44,897 bases of DNA, from assembly GCA_012730045.1 (NCBI GenBank), contig JAAYBR010000028.1, forward strand, positions 1-44,897. The letters run 5' to 3'. The translations under genes were made by a program, and so were the position numbers. The stretch is from Candidatus Hydrogenedentota bacterium. GTDB lineage: Bacteria > Hydrogenedentota > Hydrogenedentia > Hydrogenedentales > CAITNO01. A model generated the notes under the pieces. The model saw only the letters and a list, made by a program, of their open reading frames with translations, did not search any database and had not been told where the DNA came from. The stretch's first letter is position 1. Every line of letters begins with the position of its first letter. Positions 27,477-42,136 of this stretch are shown here, in pieces.

Positions 27477-30269
27477 CTACAGGGTGAACTCGACGGTGAG
27501 GATCTTCTTGGGGCCGAAGGCGAGCCTGAGCGTGCTGCCCCCGGGGGCGAGGGTCTCGCGGCGCTCCTCGTTCAGGTTGGTGAGCCACGCGCCGGTGAGG
27601 GGGCGGTGGGTCCGCACCACGCCGTCCACGGGCTTCGCCGTCGGGTTGAACACGCGGAGGATGTAGCTGCCGGGCCGGTCCTCGGCCTGCTTGAAGGCCG
27701 TGACCTGGAGGTTTTCGCCCTCCAGCGTGAGGAAGCTGAGGGCCTTGGGCAGGGTGCCCGTGTGCGGCCCGGCCTGCGCGGGCTCCAGCGGCAGGTTCAT
27801 GTCCTCGGCCTGGGCGTAGACGCCGTTGGTCCAGTCGCCGCTGTGGGGGTACAGGGCGTAGGTCCACTCGAACTTGCCGATGCACTGGGCCAGCTCCATG
27901 TCCGGGAAGGTCTCCCAGCGGCCGAACACGGGGGAGTTGCGGAAGGTGAAGGCGCGCAGGAGCGTGACGGCCAGCGGCTTGTCCGCCCGGTCCATGGCCT
28001 CGTACTCGCGGAGCCCGGAGTTGTTGAGGACGGCGAAGCCGTGGGTGCCGTCCGTCATGTCCACGAAGCGGTGCATGGGGTACTGCGGGTTCGGCTTGCC
28101 GAAGTAGGCGTTCCCCTCCTTGACATGGATGTCGCGGCCGATGACGTCGTAGGAGATTTCCGCGTCCGTGCGGTCGCAGCCCGCGAGGCGGGTGGGGAAC
28201 ACCACGCGGAGACGGTGGTGTTTGCAGGTGTTCTCGAAGGAGGTCTGGATGTCCAGGCGCGGCGAGTCGGCCCGCAGGGTGAAACGGCTGGTGACGACCA
28301 TCTCACGCCGCTCCTTCGTGCGGCCCGTGTCGTTGATGTCGCCCTCGCGGAAGTCCACATAGGGCTCGTCCTCGACGCTGACGGGGATGCTCAGGTGGTA
28401 GTCCACGCGCATCCGAGCGAGCAGGGGCCCGTCCTCCTCCAGGGCGATGTCGCAGGGGCATCCGTGGGAGGTGATGACCTCGTTGCGCTCGGGCTCCATA
28501 TGGATCCACGAGTGGCCGGTCTCGCCGGAGTCCTCGAGGTAGTGCAGGCCGGTGTAGGCGCGGCCCGTCTCCTTGTGGAGGAGATCGAGGGTGCCGTCGC
28601 TGTTGAACCGGACGCGCACGAAGGCGTTCTCCAGCACGTTGACCTCCGGCGCGAGGCTTCCGGGCGCGCGGTCGAACATCTCCTCGCGGGCGACGTGGTA
28701 GGTGGCGTAGCCGTAGGCGGGCACCTCGTCCAGCTCGACATGGCAGCGCACGCGCTCCGTGCGGACCTCGACCGAGATGTCCTGGAGGTTGCGCACGAGC
28801 ACGCCCATGGGGAAGCGCTCCTGCCTCTGCATGCGCAGCTTCTTCCCCGTCGCGGGGTTCACGAGGCTGAAGGCCTCGTAGCCCATGTTCTGCGGCATGT
28901 CCACCAGGCAGGAGACGACGCCCTTGCGCGGGAACGGGCAGGGGTTGAAGACCGTCACCACGCTGTCGCGCGGGGACAGGTCGCCGTTGTCCACCTGCCG
29001 CTGGACGGCCTCCAGGGCGCGGCGGGACAGGCCGTCGCAGATGATGTTGATCTGGTCGAAGCGGAAGTGGGAGTCCTTCTCCATCTGGTCAATGCCGCCG
29101 CCGGTGATGGTGTCGTGCGGGTGGTTCTGGAGGAGGAAGCGCCAGCAGCGGTCGAGGGCGGTCTTGAGGTACTCGCCGCCGGCCATGGAGGCGACGGCGC
29201 TCCAGGGCTCGGCGCGCCGCTGGAGGTTGACCTCGGAGGCGTGGTTGGCCTGCTTCAGGCGGGGCCGCGCGCTGATGACGTCGCCGAAGAGATGGGTCCA
29301 CTTGCCCGTGGCGCCGGGGTCGCGGAACTCGCCGCGCAGGACGATGGGGTCCTTCACCTCGGCGCGGATGCCGTTCATGTACTCCTCCAGGCTGGAGAAG
29401 CGGATGTCATGCTCCGGCAGCAGCTCCTGGCAGAGCTTCATGATCCGCGTCTCCTCGGGGTCCGGGTTCGACGAGTCGAAGCCCTGCATGGCCACGATGT
29501 GGCGCGAGGAGAAGTGCTCCGACTCGTCCCGCACCAGCTTCAGGAGCTGCTCGCGGATGGGCGCGTCGTTCCACTGCTTCTTCTTGTCGTCGAGGATGTA
29601 GTAGTGCTCCCGCGGGCGCGCGTCGGACGCCAGCCGGAACGGCGCCGCGCCCCGGTCCCAGTCGTAGCGCGTGAAAACCTCGTCCGACCCGTAGCGCAGG
29701 ACCCGGTAGACGTAGATGTAATAGCTGAACCGGCTCATCGTGCCGAACCGCGACCCGAAGAGCCGCGAGCCGTCCGGCCCCTCCAGGATGTACTCGCACT
29801 TCGGCGTGTTGATCCCCCGGTAGAAGATGATCGTGTCAATGTCGAAGCCGTTGTAAATCTGGGGAATCTGCGAGGTCTGGCCATAGCTGAACGGGGTGTA
29901 CCCGATCTTGGAGACCTTGCCGAGACTGTCGGCGCTGCGGTGGCCCACCACCAGGTTGCGCACCAGCGACTCGCCGTTGCAGATGTACTCCTCCGGCAGG
30001 GAATACCACGGGCCGACGATGAGGCGGCCGGACTTCACATGCTTCTCGATGTCGGCGCGCCGCTCCGGGCGCAGCTCCAGGTAGTCCTCCACGCACAGGG
30101 TCTGCGAGTCCATGGTGAACGAGTGAAACTCTGGGTCCGTGTCCAGCAGGTCCAGCAGCTCGTCCATGAACTTCAGCAGAAGCAGGCGCGTCTCCTCGAA
30201 GGGGTAGCCCCATTCCCGGTCCCAGTGGGAGTTGGACACGACATGGATGATCTTGCGCTCGTCGGACAT
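27477..30269 (-). CDS. GH38 alpha-mannosidase family protein with atypical nucleophile position
   Basis: A 930-residue cytoplasmic-looking protein (no signal peptide) of glycoside hydrolase family 38. The N-terminal zinc ligands are present in SHWDREWGYPFEETR (H15, D17). A second zinc-ligand motif NHPHDTITGGGIDQMEKD is present, as are the C-terminal beta domains. The region that normally reads D-x-F-G with the nucleophile Asp reads YTPFSYGQTSQIPQIYNG, so Phe127 stands where Asp is expected. ATG 30269 follows AGGAGA by 7 nt; a longer reading upstream lacks support. The family removes alpha-linked mannose, or mannosylglycerate in MngB-type enzymes. The gene sits alone, between a promoter-terminator overlap and the B12-regulated gene. 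Confidence 0.9.
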   Translation of the reverse strand: MSDERKIIHVVSNSHWDREWGYPFEETRLLLLKFMDELLDLLDTDPEFHSFTMDSQTLCVEDYLELRPERRADIEKHVKSGRLIVGPWYSLPEEYICNGESLVRNLVVGHRSADSLGKVSKIGYTPFSYGQTSQIPQIYNGFDIDTIIFYRGINTPKCEYILEGPDGSRLFGSRFGTMSRFSYYIYVYRVLRYGSDEVFTRYDWDRGAAPFRLASDARPREHYYILDDKKKQWNDAPIREQLLKLVRDESEHFSSRHIVAMQGFDSSNPDPEETRIMKLCQELLPEHDIRFSSLEEYMNGIRAEVKDPIVLRGEFRDPGATGKWTHLFGDVISARPRLKQANHASEVNLQRRAEPWSAVASMAGGEYLKTALDRCWRFLLQNHPHDTITGGGIDQMEKDSHFRFDQINIICDGLSRRALEAVQRQVDNGDLSPRDSVVTVFNPCPFPRKGVVSCLVDMPQNMGYEAFSLVNPATGKKLRMQRQERFPMGVLVRNLQDISVEVRTERVRCHVELDEVPAYGYATYHVAREEMFDRAPGSLAPEVNVLENAFVRVRFNSDGTLDLLHKETGRAYTGLHYLEDSGETGHSWIHMEPERNEVITSHGCPCDIALEEDGPLLARMRVDYHLSIPVSVEDEPYVDFREGDINDTGRTKERREMVVTSRFTLRADSPRLDIQTSFENTCKHHRLRVVFPTRLAGCDRTDAEISYDVIGRDIHVKEGNAYFGKPNPQYPMHRFVDMTDGTHGFAVLNNSGLREYEAMDRADKPLAVTLLRAFTFRNSPVFGRWETFPDMELAQCIGKFEWTYALYPHSGDWTNGVYAQAEDMNLPLEPAQAGPHTGTLPKALSFLTLEGENLQVTAFKQAEDRPGSYILRVFNPTAKPVDGVVRTHRPLTGAWLTNLNEERRETLAPGGSTLRLAFGPKKILTVEFTL

Positions 30270-30517
30270 GATGGAGTCTCCTGAAATAAGGCCAGCGGCC
30301 CGCTGCATGCTGGAAACAGCCCCGGGGAACCCGGGGAAACGCCCCGAAATGTACACCGGAACGGGGGGGAAACACAAAAAACGCAGGGTGAAACACGGAC
30401 GAAAAGACGAGGCAGGCGGGACGCCTGCGGTACGCAAGCCCGTACCGCCGCCGTCCCGGCGGCCTTGTCTTCAGTCTTCCGCGTAAACACCGTGTCCCCT
30501 GAGAAGCACCGGGCCCA
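30270..30517. other. Intergenic region with a short hairpin
   Basis: It lies between the stop of the propeller gene and the start of the GH38 gene, both on the minus strand. An 8-bp stem (30427-30434 with 30441-30448) may end the upstream transcript, though it has no T run. I found no convincing promoter for GH38 here. Confidence 0.4.
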
Positions 30518-33893: not shown

Positions 33894-36584
33894 TCAGCGG
33901 AAGTCGCCAGTCAGGCGGAAGGCCGCCCAGTCCGGCGATTCCGGGTGCGCCGCGCGCAGGGCGTCCGCCGCCGCGCGCGCCGCCGAGGCGCGGTCGGCGC
34001 CCGCCTGCGCGGCGAGGAAGGCGGTGAGATACTCCCGCGCCACGGCCGGGGCGACGGGCCAGAGCGGGAGGATGACCGAGGACGCGCCCGCGTGGCGGAA
34101 GGCCTCGGCAAGGACCGAGAACACCTCGGCGCGCGGTGCGCTTCCCGCGGGCTCGGCGGTCCAGTCCAGCATCACGGCGGCGGCGGGCAGGTTGAGCCCG
34201 AGGACGCGCGCGGGCGGGGTCTCCCCCTGCACGCCATCCCCGCCCAGCAGCACCGGGCAGAGCATCGGATCGGGGGGCGTCAGATTCAGGTTGGCGGACA
34301 GGAAAAGCATGTCCTCCGGCGCGGCGCCCTCCAGCAGCCGGGTCAGGGTCGCCTCGGCGCCGAAAACATGGTCGCCCGCGGGCAGGCCGGCCGCGTCGCC
34401 CGGAGCGGCGGCGGGCAGGAAGGCCCGGAGGCGCGCCGCCTTGACGGCGGGTTTTTCCACCGCCTTCAGGAGCAGCCCGGCGCTCTCGGCGAAACTCAAC
34501 ACATGCGACTGCCCAATCGGCGTCCCGGCGGCCGTCATCAACGGCCAGGGGAGCGGGGACAGCACCTCGTCCGGACACAGGACCACCCGCTGCGCCTGCG
34601 CGAGACGCTCCGCGCAGGGGTCCAGCAGCGCGGCCGAAAGCCCCGCCAGGGGGGCGGCGGCATCGGCGGACGCGGCCCGCGCCGCGCGGGCCGCGTGGAG
34701 CCCCGACAGGGCGGCCGCCTCGTTCAAGTCCAGCGCGCGCGCCTCGACGAAATCGGCCCCCGCCATGACCACCACCGCGCCGTAGGCGTCCACAGCATAG
34801 TTCAGAAGAAGGGTCCCCGCGGGCAGGACCGCGCGCAGGGCGGCCAGCTCGCCGGGCTGGACGGCGGGGTAGTTCAGGTTCTCCGGAGATACAAACTCAA
34901 CGGCCCGGTCCAGCCAGGCCAGCCTTTCGACATCGCGTGCCAAACGGCCAAGCAACCGGTCAATTTCTTCGGCATCTCCCGCCGCCTCGGCGTCTTTGAG
35001 GCGGGCCTCAATCCACGGCACCCGGAGGCGGACGGCCTCCCGTTCACTGGCGGCATCGGTGCGGGCGGAGTCGTCGGTGATGCTTCCCCCCAGCAGGGTG
35101 GTGACCCTCGCGGTCTTGAAGGATTCGGCCGCCGCGAAGGCGTCCTCATGTTTCCCCAGGGCGGCGAGTGCCCGGACGCGCGCGACAGCGGCGTAGCGGA
35201 GCATGCGCTGGCCTGTTCCCCGGTTGAAGGCGTCGGCATCCATGAACTGCCTTCCGGCGGCCGCCTTGGCCTCGGCCTTGTCCACGGCGGCCAGGGCGTC
35301 TTCAGGGTGCCCCTGGCGGTTCAGCGCGGCGGCGAGCTTGAGATACACGTCCACCGCGCGCTGGAAGTCGCTGAGATAGGTGGACCCCTCGTAGTAGGGC
35401 AGGGCCATCTCCGCCAGGATGCGCGCCCCCGCGTTGTCCCCCTCGGCGAGGCGGCAGGCCAGCTCCCCGGCAACGGCCTCGGCGGTGAAGAATTCGTTCA
35501 CGGGGCCCTTCCAGGGGACCTCCTTGTCGTTCGCTTCGCGCAGTGCGGTGATCTCCGGGTCGTCCAGGGGCCGGACGGCGGCGAGCGTCTCCAGCAGGCG
35601 CCCCTGGCAGTAGCGGATGTAGTCGGTGTGCGCGATCTCGCGCGCCACGGCGAGGGCGTCGCGCCACGCGCCGGCGGCGCGCTCCATGTGCGCCGCGCCC
35701 GCCCCAGGATCGCGGTCATACAGCATGCGCCACGAAATCGCCAGATTCTGGTGGTTGCGCATCGCGCTCTCGCGGTTTTCACCGCGCGCGGCGTGGCCCA
35801 GCGCCGCCAGGAAATAGTCCACCGCGACATCGGGCTCCTCAATGTAGTTGTACTGGGTGCCCACCTCCTGGTTGATCCACATGAGCCGCAGGTCCCCCTC
35901 CTTGTCCCCGTCGGCAACCGAAGGCGCCACTGCGAGGGCGGTGGCATATTCGGCGATCTGGCGGCGGACCCGGCGGTTCTTGCGGTGCCGCTCGGCAAAA
36001 TCCACATGCTGCCCGACGTTTTCCCAGGAGGGGGTGCGGTCGGACAGGGTGGCGGTGTACCCGACATACTCCTGAAGAGCCGCCTTTTCCGCCTCCGGAG
36101 CGTACTTGACGGCGCTTTCCATGCTCCTCAGCGCCTCCTCGTACCGGCCCAGCAGGCGCTGGGTGTCGGACAGCCACCACCAGTGGTAATAGTTCTCCGG
36201 CGCCTTCTCTGACACCTCTTCCAGAAGACGCAACGCCTTCTCATAGGCACCCGTCTCCTTCAGGGAAAAGCCAAGCCGCCCCGTGACCTCCAGGTCGGCC
36301 GGGTCCAAGGCCTGGGCAGCCGACAGATGCTCGACGGCCTTGGGGTAGTCCTCCTTCTCATATGCATCCATGCCCAGCCTGCGGGGTTCGGCGGCAACAA
36401 TCGCCCCGGGACGCCCTTCGGAAATGGCGGCGGCCGGCGAGGGGGAAGCATCCTGCGCGGCCGGAGTGCCCGTCACCACGGCGGGGTCGCCGGGAACAGC
36501 GGCCAGGGAGACCAGGGAAAGCAGGACACAGCCAACCCAGAGCGGGAGGGCGCGGCGGAGGATGGAAACCGGGGGGATGAGCAT
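33894..36584 (-). CDS. Secreted TPR-CHAT protein with apparently inactive CHAT domain
   Basis: An 896-residue protein with an N-terminal signal or anchor (LPLWVGCVLLSLVSLAAVPG). TPR-like helical repeats run from about residue 75 to 500 (GMDAYEKEDYPKAVEHLSAA and KETGAYEKALRLLEEVSEKA are clear units). The last ~330 residues resemble a CHAT caspase-like domain, with HVLSFAESAGLLL and FRHAGASSVILPLWPV. The catalytic His segment (usually ATHG) reads LFLSANLNL (residues 760-768) and the catalytic Cys segment (usually LSAC) reads MLDWTAEP (805-812), so neither residue is present. It is likely a binding or scaffold protein. ATG 36584 follows AAGGA by about 10 nt. Confidence 0.82.
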   Translation of the reverse strand: MLIPPVSILRRALPLWVGCVLLSLVSLAAVPGDPAVVTGTPAAQDASPSPAAAISEGRPGAIVAAEPRRLGMDAYEKEDYPKAVEHLSAAQALDPADLEVTGRLGFSLKETGAYEKALRLLEEVSEKAPENYYHWWWLSDTQRLLGRYEEALRSMESAVKYAPEAEKAALQEYVGYTATLSDRTPSWENVGQHVDFAERHRKNRRVRRQIAEYATALAVAPSVADGDKEGDLRLMWINQEVGTQYNYIEEPDVAVDYFLAALGHAARGENRESAMRNHQNLAISWRMLYDRDPGAGAAHMERAAGAWRDALAVAREIAHTDYIRYCQGRLLETLAAVRPLDDPEITALREANDKEVPWKGPVNEFFTAEAVAGELACRLAEGDNAGARILAEMALPYYEGSTYLSDFQRAVDVYLKLAAALNRQGHPEDALAAVDKAEAKAAAGRQFMDADAFNRGTGQRMLRYAAVARVRALAALGKHEDAFAAAESFKTARVTTLLGGSITDDSARTDAASEREAVRLRVPWIEARLKDAEAAGDAEEIDRLLGRLARDVERLAWLDRAVEFVSPENLNYPAVQPGELAALRAVLPAGTLLLNYAVDAYGAVVVMAGADFVEARALDLNEAAALSGLHAARAARAASADAAAPLAGLSAALLDPCAERLAQAQRVVLCPDEVLSPLPWPLMTAAGTPIGQSHVLSFAESAGLLLKAVEKPAVKAARLRAFLPAAAPGDAAGLPAGDHVFGAEATLTRLLEGAAPEDMLFLSANLNLTPPDPMLCPVLLGGDGVQGETPPARVLGLNLPAAAVMLDWTAEPAGSAPRAEVFSVLAEAFRHAGASSVILPLWPVAPAVAREYLTAFLAAQAGADRASAARAAADALRAAHPESPDWAAFRLTGDFR

Positions 36585-36741
36585 TCGGGGCGTTCCTTTA
36601 AGGTGTGAGAATCTCGGGCTGAGTATGCGCGCGGCGGACCGCAGGACGCAACAATCCGCCGGAGAACCGCTCCGCGCCGACATCCCCCGGAAATCCAAGC
36701 CGTCCCGCAAATGGCCTTCGTGAGCGCGCTCCGACGGCCAG
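36585..36741. other. Divergent intergenic region between CHAT gene and radical SAM promoter
   Basis: It holds the leader of the minus-strand CHAT gene. I see no other gene and no strong minus-strand promoter. Confidence 0.4.
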
Positions 36742-36979: not shown

Positions 36980-38251
36980 ATGAATTCTGCCCGCCAGGAC
37001 GGACTGAAGAAGACAACTCGACGCGTCATCACCAAACGGGGTGTCATGTGGCTGGGGCAGACCTGCAACCAGCGCTGTTACTTCTGCTACTTCATTGACC
37101 GCATCGAGGACCACGACCACCCCGAGCACGCCTTCATGACCCTGGAGAAGGCGAAGAAAATCTGCCACACCCTGCGGTATGTCTATGGAAACAACGCCAT
37201 AGACATTCAGGGCGGCGAGCCGACGGTCTACCGGGACATTCTGGAACTGGTGCGCTACTGCCGGGAGATCGGCCTGATCCCCACGCTCATCACGAACGGG
37301 CTGGTGCTCTCCGCGCCGGGGCAGATCGAGAAGTACCGGGACGCGGGCCTGCGCGATTTCCTCGTGAGCCTCCACGGCATCGGCGACATCCACGACGAGG
37401 TGGTGCGCGTGAAGGGCGCCCACAAGAAGATCATCGCGGCCATCGAGCGGATGCAGGCGCTGAACTTCCCCTTCCGCATCAACTGCACCATGTCCAAGCC
37501 CGTGGTGCCGATCCTTCCGGAGGTGGCGCGGCACGCCATCCAATACGGCGCCTACGCCGTTAACTTCATCGCCTTCAACCCCTTCGGCGACCAGGAGGGA
37601 AAGCGGCGCTCGGACACGGTGGCGCGCTATTCGGAGGTGGCGGAGAAGCTGACCGAGGCCATGGACCTGCTGGACGCGGCGGGCATCGAGACGAACGTCC
37701 GCTACCTGCCCCTGTGCATGGCGGAGGAGCGGCACCGCAAGAACTTCTACAACTTCCAGCAGCTCACCTATGACACCCACGAGTGGGACTTCCAGAGCTG
37801 GGCGTGGACCATGCGCCAGACCCAGATGCGCAAGGAGGGCGACGTCATGCAGCCCTTCTTCATGGGCAAGCCCTACGGGCGCGAGCTGCAAAACGGCGAC
37901 GCCCTCTACATCCGCGACCATTACGAGCGCAGCCCCGTGATCCAGGGCGTCAAGTTCGCCGGACAGCGCGCGCTGGCAAAAATGGTCCAGACCCTGAGCG
38001 GCCTCGACACCGTGTACCGGGAGGAGGCGCGCATCCGCGCGGAGCGCGACTGCCACTACCAGTACCACCCGGCCTGCGAGGGATGCGCCGCCCGCGACAT
38101 CTGCGACGGCTTCCACGGCGACTACGCGGAGCTGTTCGGCACGGAGGAGGCCAGGCCCATCTCCGGCGCCCCCCGCCTCCAGGACCCCCGCCACTACATC
38201 AAGGACCAGGTGAAAACCGTCGAACCCGAAGACGAGTCCTGGGCGCTGTGA
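36980..38251 (+). CDS. Radical SAM enzyme with SPASM-like C-terminal Cys cluster
   Basis: A 423-residue cytoplasmic enzyme that should bind a [4Fe-4S] cluster through CNQRCYFC (C29, C33, C36) and SAM through IQGGEPTVYRD (GGEP at 78-81). The C-terminus carries further cysteines (C358, C366, C369, C375 in HPACEGCAARDICDGFHGDY), a SPASM-like auxiliary cluster site common in peptide- and sugar-modifying members. ATG 36980 is preceded by an AAGG-containing stretch; in-frame starts upstream have no ribosome site. The downstream gene at 38293 encodes a protein whose first half aligns with this one. The substrate is unknown, and no small precursor peptide gene was found nearby. Confidence 0.87.
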   Translation: MNSARQDGLKKTTRRVITKRGVMWLGQTCNQRCYFCYFIDRIEDHDHPEHAFMTLEKAKKICHTLRYVYGNNAIDIQGGEPTVYRDILELVRYCREIGLIPTLITNGLVLSAPGQIEKYRDAGLRDFLVSLHGIGDIHDEVVRVKGAHKKIIAAIERMQALNFPFRINCTMSKPVVPILPEVARHAIQYGAYAVNFIAFNPFGDQEGKRRSDTVARYSEVAEKLTEAMDLLDAAGIETNVRYLPLCMAEERHRKNFYNFQQLTYDTHEWDFQSWAWTMRQTQMRKEGDVMQPFFMGKPYGRELQNGDALYIRDHYERSPVIQGVKFAGQRALAKMVQTLSGLDTVYREEARIRAERDCHYQYHPACEGCAARDICDGFHGDYAELFGTEEARPISGAPRLQDPRHYIKDQVKTVEPEDESWAL

Positions 38252-38292
38252 CCCGACGTTGACGGCAGGAAAGAGGACAGGCCTGCGGCATC

Positions 38293-40656
38293 ATGCGTGA
38301 ACCGGACGGAAAGGAAAACACCCCCCTCCCGGCGGCGGGGCCCCTGCGGCCCGTCCGCGGGCTGGTCCTCACACGCAACCGCCGCGGCGTCCCCTTCGCC
38401 CTTACCGACCTCCGCAAGTGGATCCGCCTGAACGCGGATGTGTTCAAAACGCGGAAGATGGACCTGCTGGCCGGGGCCGACACCCTGCCCCTGCTGGCCG
38501 ACTTGGCGGATTTCACGCGGCGCGAGAACGCCGTCCTCTCCCTCCGGGTGCAGGACGCGGCACTGCCCGGCCTCTTCACGGCCGCCGCGCATGCCGGGGT
38601 TCTCGACCTCTTCTTCTGTCCGCCCTCCCCGGACCCGGCAGTCCTTGCCGCGTTTCTGGACAGCGCCGAGCAGGCCGGGATGCCGGTGCGGGTGCAGGTC
38701 TCGCCGGTTCCCGGCGCGCTGACGGACCCGGACACGCTGGCGGGGACGCTGAAGCGCGCCGCTTCGGTGAATGTCGCCCTTTCCGACCCCTTTCTCCCCG
38801 CCCCGGCGCGCCCCCTGGAGGACGCGGCAGTGGTCTGGATGAACCGCCTGGTGCGCGCCCTGGACGAGCGGGGCGTCGAGGCGAACCTCGTCGGCCTGCC
38901 CTTCTGCCAGGTGTCCGAAGAAAACCGGCCGCACCTGCTCAACCGCCAGCAGTTCTTCCTGGACCACCAGCAGTACAACAAGGCGTCGTATGAGCTGGCG
39001 GAGAAGGTGTTCGGCTGCGGCCCGCACCGCCTGTCGAAAGTGCTGGAAAACCTGCTCGCGCGGGGGGCCTCGCTCCACCACGCCATTGACCGCGCGCTCC
39101 TGCCGTGGATCCTGGACCATCCCCGGGCGCATGTGCGTACCTGGATGCTGCACAAGGTGACGCGCCATTTCCGCTTCCTCCAGAAGACCGTCCCCCTGCC
39201 GGAGACGGTGTCCGCCTGCGAGGCCGAGGTGGCGAAGCTCCGCGGGGAGCAGCGCCGGACCCTGGGCCCGGTCTGCGCGCAGTGCCGTTTCCAGCGCGTC
39301 TGCGACCACGAGACCCCGGCCTTTCGCGACCTGCTCCCCGGTCTGCGCATCCGCGCCGAAGAAGGAAAACCGCTGCTGGCCGCCCCGTGCGGGGAACGGG
39401 AGCGCCCGCGCCACTACGACGCGGTGGACGAGGCGCGGCGGCGGATGCCGGCGCATCTGGAGGCGCTGGCAGAGAAGGCGCGCATGATCGTCATGCGCGA
39501 CACGCCGACCCGCGAGATTCCGCTCTCCGCCTACGAGATCGAGAACCATTATTCGCCCCTCGACGACGCGTCGCGGCGGTGGTACTCCTTCTCGCGCGGC
39601 GAACTCCTCAGCACCGTGCTCGGCCGGCTGGAGCCGCCCTTCACCCTCACCCTCACCTTCGGCGGCGGCATCGCCGAGCAGATCGGCTTCAGTTTCGGGC
39701 GCAACGCCAAGGTCGTCTGCCCCATGATTGACTACTCCCACCGCCTCGCCTTCCACGTGGACGCCGAAGGGCACTATGTGCTCCTGCGCGACGGCGTGCA
39801 GGTGCGGCCCACGGAGTTCGAGGGCGCCCCCCGCACCCCCGTGGTCCTTTCGGGCGTGCTGGAGCCCCGCATCTCCATCCACAACATAGACGGCTTCCTC
39901 CTCACCCAGTCGCTCATGCTCTGGGAGGGCGACGGCCGCCCGCCGGAGAAGCGCCCCGGCGTCAAGTACTCCGTCGTCATCGTCAGCACCCGCTACGCGC
40001 GCCGCCTCCAGGCCGTGCTACTGGGGTTGGCCAACCAGCGGGACGTGGACTTCTCCCTGCTGGAGGTAGTCGTCGCCCACGTCCCCGGCATTGACGGCAC
40101 CGACGACCTCATCGAGAGCGTGCGCCAGGCCTGCCCCCACCTGCGCATAGTCAACTCCTGCTTCTCCGAGGACCATGTGCGGTCCAAGGGCTTCATGATC
40201 AACGAGTCCCTCCACGTCGCCTCCGGCGAATGGATCGTCCTCATGGACTCCGACATCGTCGTGCCGCCCGACATCTTCCGGCGCATCGAGGAGGTCGAAA
40301 AGGGCGCGCACTTCATCGCCCCCGACGGGCGCCGCATGGTCTCCCCCGAGATGACCGCCCGCATCCTGCTGGGCCAGGTGCGCCCCTGGGAGGACTACGC
40401 CGCCGCTGTCGCCGCCACGCCCGACTACCGCTACCGCGAGGGTGCGGGTGTGCCCTGCGGCTTCTTCCAGTGCGTCCGCAGAGAGGTCCTCGAAACCCTC
40501 CCCTACGAGGAGCTCGACCACTTCGAGGCCTCCGACTGGATCTTCGGCCGCGACGTCATCAACCGCTTCGGCAAAGAGACCCGCCTCGAGGGACTCGACG
40601 TCCTCCACCTAGACCACGGCGGCCGCCAGTGGTACGGCACCCACAAACACCGCTGA
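38293..40656 (+). CDS. Pseudo-radical-SAM / GT2 glycosyltransferase fusion
   Basis: A 787-residue protein. Residues ~20-350 look like a paralogue of the preceding radical SAM enzyme that has lost the cluster motif: the start reads GLVLTRNRRGVPFALTDL with no CxxxCxxC, yet RALDERGVEANLVGLPFC (C205) aligns with LLDAAGIETNVRYLPLC of the neighbour, and CAQCRFQRVCDH (328-339) aligns with its CEGCAARDICDG. Residues ~555-787 are a GT-A fold glycosyltransferase: YSVVIVSTRYARRLQAVLLG, SGEWIVLMDSDIVVPPD with the DxD at 652-654. The centre (400-550) is beta-rich and unassigned. It follows the radical SAM gene by 41 nt. A nucleotide-sugar donor is expected; the acceptor is unknown. Confidence 0.75.
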   Translation: MREPDGKENTPLPAAGPLRPVRGLVLTRNRRGVPFALTDLRKWIRLNADVFKTRKMDLLAGADTLPLLADLADFTRRENAVLSLRVQDAALPGLFTAAAHAGVLDLFFCPPSPDPAVLAAFLDSAEQAGMPVRVQVSPVPGALTDPDTLAGTLKRAASVNVALSDPFLPAPARPLEDAAVVWMNRLVRALDERGVEANLVGLPFCQVSEENRPHLLNRQQFFLDHQQYNKASYELAEKVFGCGPHRLSKVLENLLARGASLHHAIDRALLPWILDHPRAHVRTWMLHKVTRHFRFLQKTVPLPETVSACEAEVAKLRGEQRRTLGPVCAQCRFQRVCDHETPAFRDLLPGLRIRAEEGKPLLAAPCGERERPRHYDAVDEARRRMPAHLEALAEKARMIVMRDTPTREIPLSAYEIENHYSPLDDASRRWYSFSRGELLSTVLGRLEPPFTLTLTFGGGIAEQIGFSFGRNAKVVCPMIDYSHRLAFHVDAEGHYVLLRDGVQVRPTEFEGAPRTPVVLSGVLEPRISIHNIDGFLLTQSLMLWEGDGRPPEKRPGVKYSVVIVSTRYARRLQAVLLGLANQRDVDFSLLEVVVAHVPGIDGTDDLIESVRQACPHLRIVNSCFSEDHVRSKGFMINESLHVASGEWIVLMDSDIVVPPDIFRRIEEVEKGAHFIAPDGRRMVSPEMTARILLGQVRPWEDYAAAVAATPDYRYREGAGVPCGFFQCVRREVLETLPYEELDHFEASDWIFGRDVINRFGKETRLEGLDVLHLDHGGRQWYGTHKHR

Positions 40657-40771: not shown

Positions 40772-41012
40772 CGTCATTGCGAGCGCAGCGCGGCAATCTC
40801 GTTCTCGCCATCGCCACAGTCTTCCCCCGTCATTGCGAAGGCGCGCAGCGCCTGAAGCAATCCCGTGCCCGCCATCGCCACAGTCTTCCCCCGTCATTGC
40901 GAAGGCGCGAAGCGCCTGAAGCAATCCCGTGCCCGCCATCGCCACAGTCTTCCCCCGTCATTGCGAAGGCGCGAAGCGCCTGAAGCAATCCCGTGCCCGC
41001 CATCGCTACAAT
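40772..41012. repeat. Tandem palindromic repeats, three 64-bp units plus one 56-bp variant
   Basis: Near-identical 64-bp units start at 40828, 40892 and 40956. Each holds cgtcattgcgaaggcgcg and cgcctgaagcaatcc as inverted halves. A shorter variant (cgtcattgcgagcgcagcgc) occupies 40772-40827. The same composite, 56-bp-type plus 64-bp-type, recurs at 43548-43670. There are no spacers, so it is not a CRISPR array. Nothing suggests coding. Confidence 0.92.
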
Positions 41013-41055
41013 GCCCCGCCCCTCCCGTCCGGCAACTGCCCGCGCCGAGAACAAG

Positions 41056-41086
41056 TTGCCCGACACCCCCCGGCGTGCCGTACACT
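41056..41086 (+). promoter_or_regulatory. Possible promoter of the pYEATS-like gene
   Basis: TTGCCC (41056-41061) and TACACT (41081-41086) are 19 nt apart, and would give a leader of about 20 nt before ATG 41114. The spacing is long, so the call is weak. Confidence 0.4.
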
Positions 41087-41113
41087 CTCTCCGAAACGAG
41101 AGGGAGACCCGCC

Positions 41114-42136
41114 ATGCGCCCTGCCCTGTTCCTGCTCCTCGCCGCCATCCTCTGCGCCTTCAACGCCCCCGCCCAGGACGCCCCCGCACCGGCGGCCCCG
41201 CCGCAAAGTGCCCCCCCTGTCGCGGCGATCCCTCCTGCTCCGGCGTCACAAGCAGTCCTTGCCTCCCCGCCCGCCGTCCCAAGTCCCCCGGTGCCTGAGG
41301 ACAAGGAACTCACGCGGCTGGAGGAAAGGATTAACAACCTGGAAGACAAGCGCATTGATGAGGACGACGCGAACGCCACAGTCTTAGAATCATCGCCACT
41401 GAACTCACGCGTGGATCAAACTCCGCGCGACCGCACACAACCTTTGAGGATTGGACTGAATGCCGCATATGTGCCGCTTCTACAGACGCTCGTCTGGCCG
41501 CTCTTCTTGGCAATCCTCATTGCCGTCTTTCGCAGTCACTTCAGCCGACTCCTTGATGCGTTTCGCAGGCGGATCGAAGAAGGAAGCTCTTTCAAAGCTG
41601 GCCCCTTTGAGATTGGTGAGAATCTGAGGTCGTTGGACTACAGACCACCATCCAGCGAGCAACAGCAGACTGCCGTTGCGGAGTCGGCCGGTGAGCAAGA
41701 GGATCAGGGTGAATGGGCGCAGAAGCGAACAGGCATCTATCAGCAGAATCGCGGCATTTTCTTGGCACACGTATTGACGCCGCCGAGAAGAGCGCGAGAG
41801 GGATACGATATCTACATCTACCTGATCCGGCATGCGAGCAATGAAAGTCACAGGCCTCGGGATTTATCCGATGTGGCGTATGCGGAGTTCTTTCTCGGGC
41901 ACATGTGGGGAAACAGAGTGTTTCGGGAGACTCCCCATGACGGCATGATTGGAATGTCCACGTATGCTTACAGCCCTTTCCTCTGCATATGCCGGGTTCA
42001 CCTCAGGGATGGATCCGTTGTGAAGCTGGACCGGTACATCGATTTCGAAATGGGCGACTTCTACAACCGCAAGCACCCGAACAGCGCGCGGGATAACCAG
42101 TCCCCCGCAAGCTGCCACCTGGAAGCGGGGCCGTGA
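41114..42136 (+). CDS. Membrane-anchored protein with C-terminal pYEATS-like domain
   Basis: A 340-residue protein. It has a signal peptide (about 1-20), a Pro/Ala linker, a short coiled coil (LTRLEERINNLEDKR, 66-80), one membrane helix (117-139) and a soluble domain at about 214-312. That domain (YDIYIYLIR, VAYAEFFLGHMWGNRVF, LCICRVHLRDGSVVKLDRY) fits the prokaryotic YEATS (pYEATS) pattern known mostly from predicted conflict and signalling systems; the match is by eye. ATG 41114 follows GGGAGA. From about 41330 the DNA is visibly less GC-rich than the rest of the window, a sign of transfer. The likely partner is the gene at 42377. Confidence 0.65.
   Translation: MRPALFLLLAAILCAFNAPAQDAPAPAAPPQSAPPVAAIPPAPASQAVLASPPAVPSPPVPEDKELTRLEERINNLEDKRIDEDDANATVLESSPLNSRVDQTPRDRTQPLRIGLNAAYVPLLQTLVWPLFLAILIAVFRSHFSRLLDAFRRRIEEGSSFKAGPFEIGENLRSLDYRPPSSEQQQTAVAESAGEQEDQGEWAQKRTGIYQQNRGIFLAHVLTPPRRAREGYDIYIYLIRHASNESHRPRDLSDVAYAEFFLGHMWGNRVFRETPHDGMIGMSTYAYSPFLCICRVHLRDGSVVKLDRYIDFEMGDFYNRKHPNSARDNQSPASCHLEAGP

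What the first reader, a model, noticed from the sequence alone, without database searches (positions are those of the whole stretch)
36980..40656. Radical SAM enzyme paired with a cluster-less paralogue fused to a GT2 glycosyltransferase
Seen: the first protein has CNQRCYFC, GGEP and a SPASM-like Cys end. The second, 41 nt later, lacks CxxxCxxC but matches the first in its middle (GVEANLVGLPFC against GIETNVRYLPLC) and at the C-terminal Cys set (CAQCRFQRVCDH against CEGCAARDICDG), then continues into a GT-A domain with DSD. Inference: duplication, loss of the catalytic cluster and fusion gave a protein whose pseudo-enzyme half may hold the substrate or the active partner while the GT domain adds a sugar. 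I know no described system with this layout.
Basis: partly seen in the sequence, partly recalled or inferred. Interest (0 to 1): 0.82.

Follow-up and report, generated by a model that had tools for sequence, protein, structure and literature searches.

The report
Inactive radical-enzyme half fused to sugar transferase
A poorly known bacterial phylum almost always carries a sugar-adding enzyme whose front half is a disabled copy of a neighbouring radical enzyme (its main iron-sulphur site gone, its second one kept), probably helping to build a sugar chain for the cell surface, a protein layout that I did not find described.

Summary
P1 (36980-38251) is a radical SAM protein with one auxiliary-cluster cysteine set. 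P2 (38293-40656) is a P1-specific paralogue without the AdoMet cluster, fused to a beta domain plus GT2 glycosyltransferase. No P2 of 79 has the AdoMet CxxxCxxC motif. The four cysteines matching P1's auxiliary-cluster set are kept in 66 of 79, including a distant Myxococcales-labelled homologue. So the "cluster-less" half has probably lost only one of two clusters.

P2 is a core gene of Candidatus Hydrogenedentota: 63 of 68 genomes, 38 of 38 good ones. The fusion never comes apart there. P1 occurs only with P2 (42 of 42), but P2 persists without P1 in 16 genomes, so the pseudo-half is not merely a P1 partner. Recurrent neighbours are a Wzm/Wzt-type polysaccharide exporter and GT4 glycosyltransferases. 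The P2 C-terminal model resembles GlfT2, the galactan polymerase whose product is exported by Wzm-Wzt.

Most likely P2 is a cytoplasmic chain-building glycosyltransferase whose inherited radical SAM scaffold binds the growing glycan, which P1 modifies where present. The architecture is shown; the chemistry is inferred.

The parts
36980..38251 (+). P1: radical SAM protein, 423 aa; AdoMet motif CNQRCYFC, GGEP, and one C-terminal set of four cysteines (C246, C366, C369, C375) typical of a single auxiliary cluster
   Evidence: PF04055 E 6.8e-21; no NCBIfam model over its cut-off; alignment A2, 16 orthologues, 73% mean column identity
38293..40656 (+). P2: 787-aa fusion of pseudo-radical-SAM half, beta domain and GT2 domain
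   Evidence: present in 63 of 68 genomes of the phylum
38338..39417 (+). P2 residues 16-375: TIM-barrel pseudo-radical-SAM domain plus cysteine-bearing tail; AdoMet motif and GGEP lost
   Evidence: AlphaFold2 pLDDT 87.8, pTM 0.85; generic TIM-barrel hits in the PDB; homology to P1; no Pfam hit at E<=5
38905..38907 (+). C205 codon, inferred first ligand of the kept auxiliary cluster (aligned with P1 C246)
   Evidence: invariant in 31 of 31 P2s; same position conserved in P1
39274..39303 (+). C328, C331 and C337 (CAQCRFQRVC), other inferred ligands (aligned with P1 C366, C369, C375)
   Evidence: invariant in 31 of 31 P2s
39484..39951 (+). P2 residues about 398-553: beta-sheet domain before the GT-A domain
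   Evidence: AlphaFold2 secondary structure; Foldseek matches to GlfT2 run over about 445 columns, more than a GT-A domain
39958..40653 (+). P2 residues 556-787: GT2/GT-A catalytic domain with D652-S-D654, HFEASDW (743-749) and HLDHGG..WYG (772-782) motifs
   Evidence: PF13641 E 2.9e-9 and PF00535 E 1.5e-6; invariant residues

Best explanation
P2 is a cytoplasmic, chain-building GT2 glycosyltransferase of GlfT2-like layout (beta domain plus GT-A) with a pseudo-radical-SAM scaffold in front of it. The scaffold arose from a P1-like radical SAM protein. It lost the loop that held the AdoMet cluster and the GGEP site, but kept the barrel and the four cysteines of the auxiliary cluster. It most likely now acts as the recognition module that holds the growing or primed glycan for the GT domain, with the auxiliary cluster as structural or ligand-binding element. 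P1 acts on the same glycan by radical chemistry where it is present. The product is exported by the Wzm/Wzt-type ABC transporter encoded beside P1 and P2 in many relatives. Shown: architecture, homology, conservation, genomic association. Inferred: cluster occupancy, glycan binding, P1 substrate, export of this product.
For: Specific paralogy with P1. Outside the AdoMet motifs P1 and P2 share conserved D75/D57, D126/D105, R166/R133, F202/F167, D265/D224 and all four Cys, which suggests a common ligand site. No P2 of 79 has the AdoMet motif; 66 of 79 keep the four Cys. Both halves occur only fused in 68 genomes. The recurrent order Wzm - Wzt-like ATPase - P1 - P2 - GT4 - small protein, with NCBIfam best hits to teichoic-acid and galactan exporters, points to surface-polysaccharide synthesis. 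Best PDB fold match of P2 is GlfT2, a polymerising GT whose product leaves through Wzm-Wzt (PMC10951656). P2 persists with four Cys in genomes without P1, so its front half has a job of its own. Precedent that a twitch auxiliary cluster can interact with substrate: MoaA (PMC9012708).
Against: No ligand, product or cluster has been measured. The GlfT2 match is structural only (whole-chain TM about 0.2-0.25, no Pfam GlfT2 domain), and the GT-A part matches other GT2 enzymes similarly. In the window's genome the exporter genes are on another contig (L133). Some P2 copies have lost the four Cys and still exist, so the cluster is dispensable there.
Confidence: 0.5

Rival explanations
1. Heterodimer: the P2 pseudo-half is the partner of P1. 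P1 and P2 form an active/inactive pair, P2 placing the glycan in P1 or passing electrons through its auxiliary cluster, so that radical modification and glycosyl transfer are coupled.
For: P1 found only in genomes with P2 (42 of 42); adjacency and order P1-P2 kept in 21 Hydrogenedentota genomes and a Myxococcales-labelled one; four shared Cys; intermolecular electron transfer involving an auxiliary cluster is proposed for the radical SAM enzyme PapB (PMC10470005). Several P2s without the four Cys sit directly behind other SPASM radical SAM genes, and three P2s in P1-less genomes follow yet another radical SAM gene, as if partners can be swapped.
Against: 16 of 58 P2-bearing genomes have no P1, including all four sampled genomes of family f7 and most of f11; 11 of the 14 with readable P2 keep the four Cys. 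In three readable f11 loci (G030, G035, G048) no radical SAM gene was recognised next to P2. P1 often lies on another contig, after the exporter rather than beside P2.
Confidence: 0.27
2. Structural relic: the barrel and cluster only hold the protein in shape or at the membrane or exporter, without binding substrate.
For: Sequence of the front half is much less conserved than that of the GT half (mean column identity 49% against 67%); cysteines lost in 13 of 79.
Against: Ten invariant and many near-invariant residues in the barrel half, several shared with P1; the half is never lost in 68 genomes.
Confidence: 0.17
3. The locus makes a glycosylated ribosomal peptide (RiPP): P1 modifies a precursor peptide and P2 glycosylates it.
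For: Radical SAM with auxiliary cluster plus glycosyltransferase is seen in such systems (own knowledge); distant NCBIfam hits of P1 include peptide maturases.
Against: P1 and P2 begin almost directly at the barrel, leaving no room for a leader-binding domain; the linked transporter is Wzm/Wzt-type, not a peptidase ABC; P1 and P2 directly abut exporter and GT4 genes in many loci. Short precursor genes were not searched for systematically.
Confidence: 0.05

Closest known systems
Radical SAM enzymes with one auxiliary cluster (twitch type, e.g. MoaA, BtrN)
   Same: P1: TIM-barrel core with CxxxCxxC plus one C-terminal cysteine set; P2 keeps barrel and cysteine set
   Different: P2 lacks CxxxCxxC and GGEP, so it cannot be a radical SAM enzyme; the cysteine spacing (one Cys, then CX2CX5C) is not MoaA's (own knowledge); no named family matches P1 over its cut-off
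TIGR04347 pseudo-SAM/SPASM proteins of haloarchaea
   Same: by its NCBIfam name a radical SAM relative called 'pseudo'; a distant hit of P1 (65 bits, cut-off 525)
   Different: no match of P2 to it; resemblance of P2 to this kind is by concept only
GlfT2 galactan polymerase and the Wzm-Wzt galactan exporter of mycobacteria
   Same: beta domain followed by GT-A domain; linked exporter genes match galactan exporter models distantly
   Different: no sequence-family match, and GlfT2 has no radical-SAM-like half (own knowledge)
ABC-transporter-dependent polysaccharide export (Wzm/Wzt, TagGH)
   Same: PF01061 permease and PF00005 ATPase with TagH/Wzt as best hits beside P1/P2 in relatives
   Different: the ATPase has a C-terminal extension of about 450 aa without Pfam match
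Paired radical SAM maturases HxsB/HxsC
   Same: paired radical SAM genes; HxsC is the top but sub-threshold NCBIfam hit of P1 (76 against 268 bits)
   Different: both Hxs partners are described as maturases (own knowledge); here one partner lacks the AdoMet site and is fused to a GT

Membership tests
Radical SAM superfamily (P1) | PF04055 match with CxxxCxxC | tested here: met
   E 6.8e-21; CxxxCxxC kept in the 15 A2 sequences that reach the motif
Radical SAM superfamily (P2 front half) | CxxxCxxC AdoMet-cluster motif at the first barrel strand | tested here: not met
   0 of 79 P2s have it there; the one regex hit lies in the C-terminal Cys set
Radical SAM superfamily (P2 front half) | homologous barrel (descent, not activity) | tested here: met
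   TIM-barrel model and specific homology to P1; the fold search itself hit generic TIM barrels, not radical SAM entries, in its top 50
Twitch/SPASM auxiliary cluster | conserved cysteine ligands after the barrel | tested here: met
   C205/C328/C331/C337 invariant in 31 of 31 closer P2s, kept in 66 of 79 overall; same pattern in P1
Twitch/SPASM auxiliary cluster | bound [4Fe-4S] cluster | not testable with these tools
   needs purified protein
GT2 (GT-A) glycosyltransferases | GT2 profile match and DxD metal motif | tested here: met
   PF13641 over cut-off; D652 and D654 invariant
GlfT2 | sequence-family membership | tested here: not met
   no GlfT2 domain in Pfam scan and no GlfT2 entry in the PDB profile search
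GlfT2 | beta domain plus GT-A layout | tested here: inconclusive
   best Foldseek hits, E 6.9e-12 over 446 columns, but rmsd about 21 and TM 0.25 over the whole chain
TIGR04347 pseudo-SAM/SPASM | NCBIfam equivalog score | tested here: not met
   P1 65 bits of 525, P2 no match
Wzm/Wzt-type export system | ABC-2 permease plus ATPase encoded with the genes | tested here: met
   beside P1/P2 in many relatives; in the window's genome on another contig

The most novel reading that the evidence does not exclude
A radical SAM enzyme was turned into a non-catalytic glycan-binding module that kept only its auxiliary iron-sulphur cluster and became a permanent part of a polysaccharide-building glycosyltransferase, working with an active radical SAM paralogue that chemically edits the chain before export: a phylum-wide surface glycan made with radical chemistry.
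Probability: 0.3. Interest if true: 0.82.

Novelty: new variant of a known kind. Interest (0 to 1): 0.62.

Why it matters
The AdoMet cluster and the auxiliary cluster of a radical enzyme are usually studied together. Here evolution appears to have deleted one and kept the other across a whole phylum, so P2 is a natural test of what an auxiliary cluster does by itself. It also suggests that radical chemistry takes part in making a core surface polysaccharide of Hydrogenedentota, seen here only through metagenome assemblies, and it gives two uncharacterised protein families, neither named in Pfam or NCBIfam, a testable role.

Tried and rejected
Chance similarity or a generic TIM-barrel match: rejected by controls. 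Sequencing or frameshift artefact: rejected, the open frame is kept in dozens of genomes. A standalone form of either half: none found apart from truncated or split copies. Universal P1-P2 co-dependence: rejected by P1-less genomes. Wide spread in the class of the Myxococcales-labelled genome: rejected, 1 of 290 genomes. Homology of the ATPase extension with P2: none. Foldseek on the whole P2 showed only GT entries in its top 50, so the front half was modelled and searched alone. P1 in plasmids: only distant radical SAM proteins. Literature searches for radical SAM plus glycosyltransferase or pseudoenzyme found nothing relevant in the held library, which lacks most subscription journals.

Full report
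Observation. P1 runs 36980-38251 and P2 38293-40656, 41 nt apart. P1 matches Radical_SAM (E 6.8e-21); P2 matches only GT2 families, at residues 559-737. No NCBIfam cut-off is reached by either. The front 360 residues of P2 have no Pfam match even at E 5, so the pseudo-enzyme is invisible to routine annotation.

Is the front half of P2 really P1-like? Direct BLASTP gives E = 9e-9. Profile-profile alignment gives 98.8-98.9% probability over most of the barrel and the tail. Two other SPASM radical SAM families from the same loci score 1-3% against it although they score 98% against P1. Run over 68 whole genomes, the P2 front-half profile finds P2s and P1s and nothing else. AlphaFold2 models it well (pLDDT 87.8, pTM 0.85) as alternating strands and helices, and Foldseek returns TIM barrels. 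The fold search alone does not single out radical SAM; the sequence evidence does.

What was lost and what was kept. P1's CNQRCYFC loop after the first strand is replaced in P2 by a shorter loop, and GGEP is replaced by AGAD (sequence; alignment). None of 79 P2 sequences has CxxxCxxC in that place. In contrast C205, C328, C331 and C337 are invariant in 31 of 31 closer P2s and align with P1 C246, C366, C369 and C375. Ten positions are conserved and identical in both families: those four Cys plus D57, D105, R133, F167, P203 and D224 of P2, against a mean of 0.4 for shifted alignments. So one cluster site was lost and the other kept. On a tree of 79 P2s, 66 keep the four Cys across the deep branches, and most losses fall inside Cys-bearing groups (the root is not fixed). 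The homologue in a Myxococcales-labelled genome (29% identity) keeps them too.

Distribution. P2 is in 63 of 68 genomes of Candidatus Hydrogenedentota and in all 38 that are at least 90% complete and at most 5% contaminated (names). A sample of 290 genomes from the class of the Myxococcales-labelled one held no other case, so that occurrence may be transfer or misbinning; the full gene set there argues that the genes travel or persist as a unit. In the phylum the two halves of P2 never occur apart except in truncated or split copies.

Relation to P1. P1 is in 42 of 60 genomes, all with P2; 16 genomes have P2 without P1 and two have neither. P1-P2 adjacency is seen in 21 Hydrogenedentota genomes and the Myxococcales-labelled one. 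Of 14 P1-less genomes whose P2 could be read, 11 keep the four Cys. A derived group of P2s without the Cys often follows other SPASM radical SAM genes, and three P2s of one family (f7) follow yet another. The front half therefore has a role that does not require P1, while radical SAM partners recur.

Surroundings. Clustering the flanks showed a recurrent set: ABC-2 permease, Wzt/TagH-like ATPase of about 720 aa, P1, P2, one or more GT4 enzymes and a 177-aa protein. Where P1 is not beside P2 it mostly follows the permease-ATPase pair. In the window's genome the permease and ATPase lie on another contig, close to its end. The full P2 model matches GlfT2 best, the polymerising galactosyltransferase whose product is exported by Wzm-Wzt (PMC10951656). 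That match is at the level of layout only; sequence membership was tested and not met.

Mechanism. Most likely P2 builds a chain on a carrier in the cytoplasm, its pseudo-radical-SAM half recognising the glycan with the inherited ligand site, and P1 modifies that glycan. Auxiliary clusters can interact with substrate (MoaA, PMC9012708) or take part in electron transfer between proteins (PapB, PMC10470005), which motivates the two main models. Shown here: homology, fold of the barrel, conservation and genomic association. Inferred: bound cluster, ligand, reaction of P1, and product.

Verdict. Its mechanism is half right: substrate holding is plausible, while holding the active partner cannot be the whole story. 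I found no described equivalent, within a library that lacks most subscription journals.

Noticed in passing
L194, L057, L193, L192, L200 (genomes G003, G006, G013, G016, G025): A second P2 subfamily that has lost all four cysteines sits directly behind one to three SPASM radical SAM genes and before GT4 and the 177-aa gene, as if the partner radical enzyme had been exchanged.
   Followed up: partly
L133:7682-9883 (and orthologues, e.g. L098:2338-4548): Wzt/TagH-like ATPase with a C-terminal extension of about 450 aa that matches no Pfam family; recurs across the phylum, often just upstream of P1.
   Followed up: partly
L070:12806-13336 and orthologues: Conserved 177-aa protein without Pfam match after the GT4 genes; by eye it resembles the N-terminal half of a GT-B glycosyltransferase.
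   Followed up: no
L059, L062, L065, L068, L072: Tandem P2 copies without adjacent P1 in several genomes.
   Followed up: partly
window 33897-36602, minus strand: Divergent TPR-CHAT domain protein with a probable signal peptide (by eye) directly upstream of P1.
   Followed up: no
window 40865-42136, plus strand: Next gene after P2 carries a prokaryotic YEATS domain (PF20305) at its C-terminus.
   Followed up: no
window 27480-30437, minus strand: Family 38 glycoside hydrolase (alpha-mannosidase), about 6.5 kb upstream of P1.
   Followed up: no
L052 and L083: Public records named Nitrospiraceae and Rhodothermaeota hold Hydrogenedentota-type P2; by contig they appear to correspond to G057 and G041, which the tool places in the window's order, so the record names look wrong.
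   Followed up: partly
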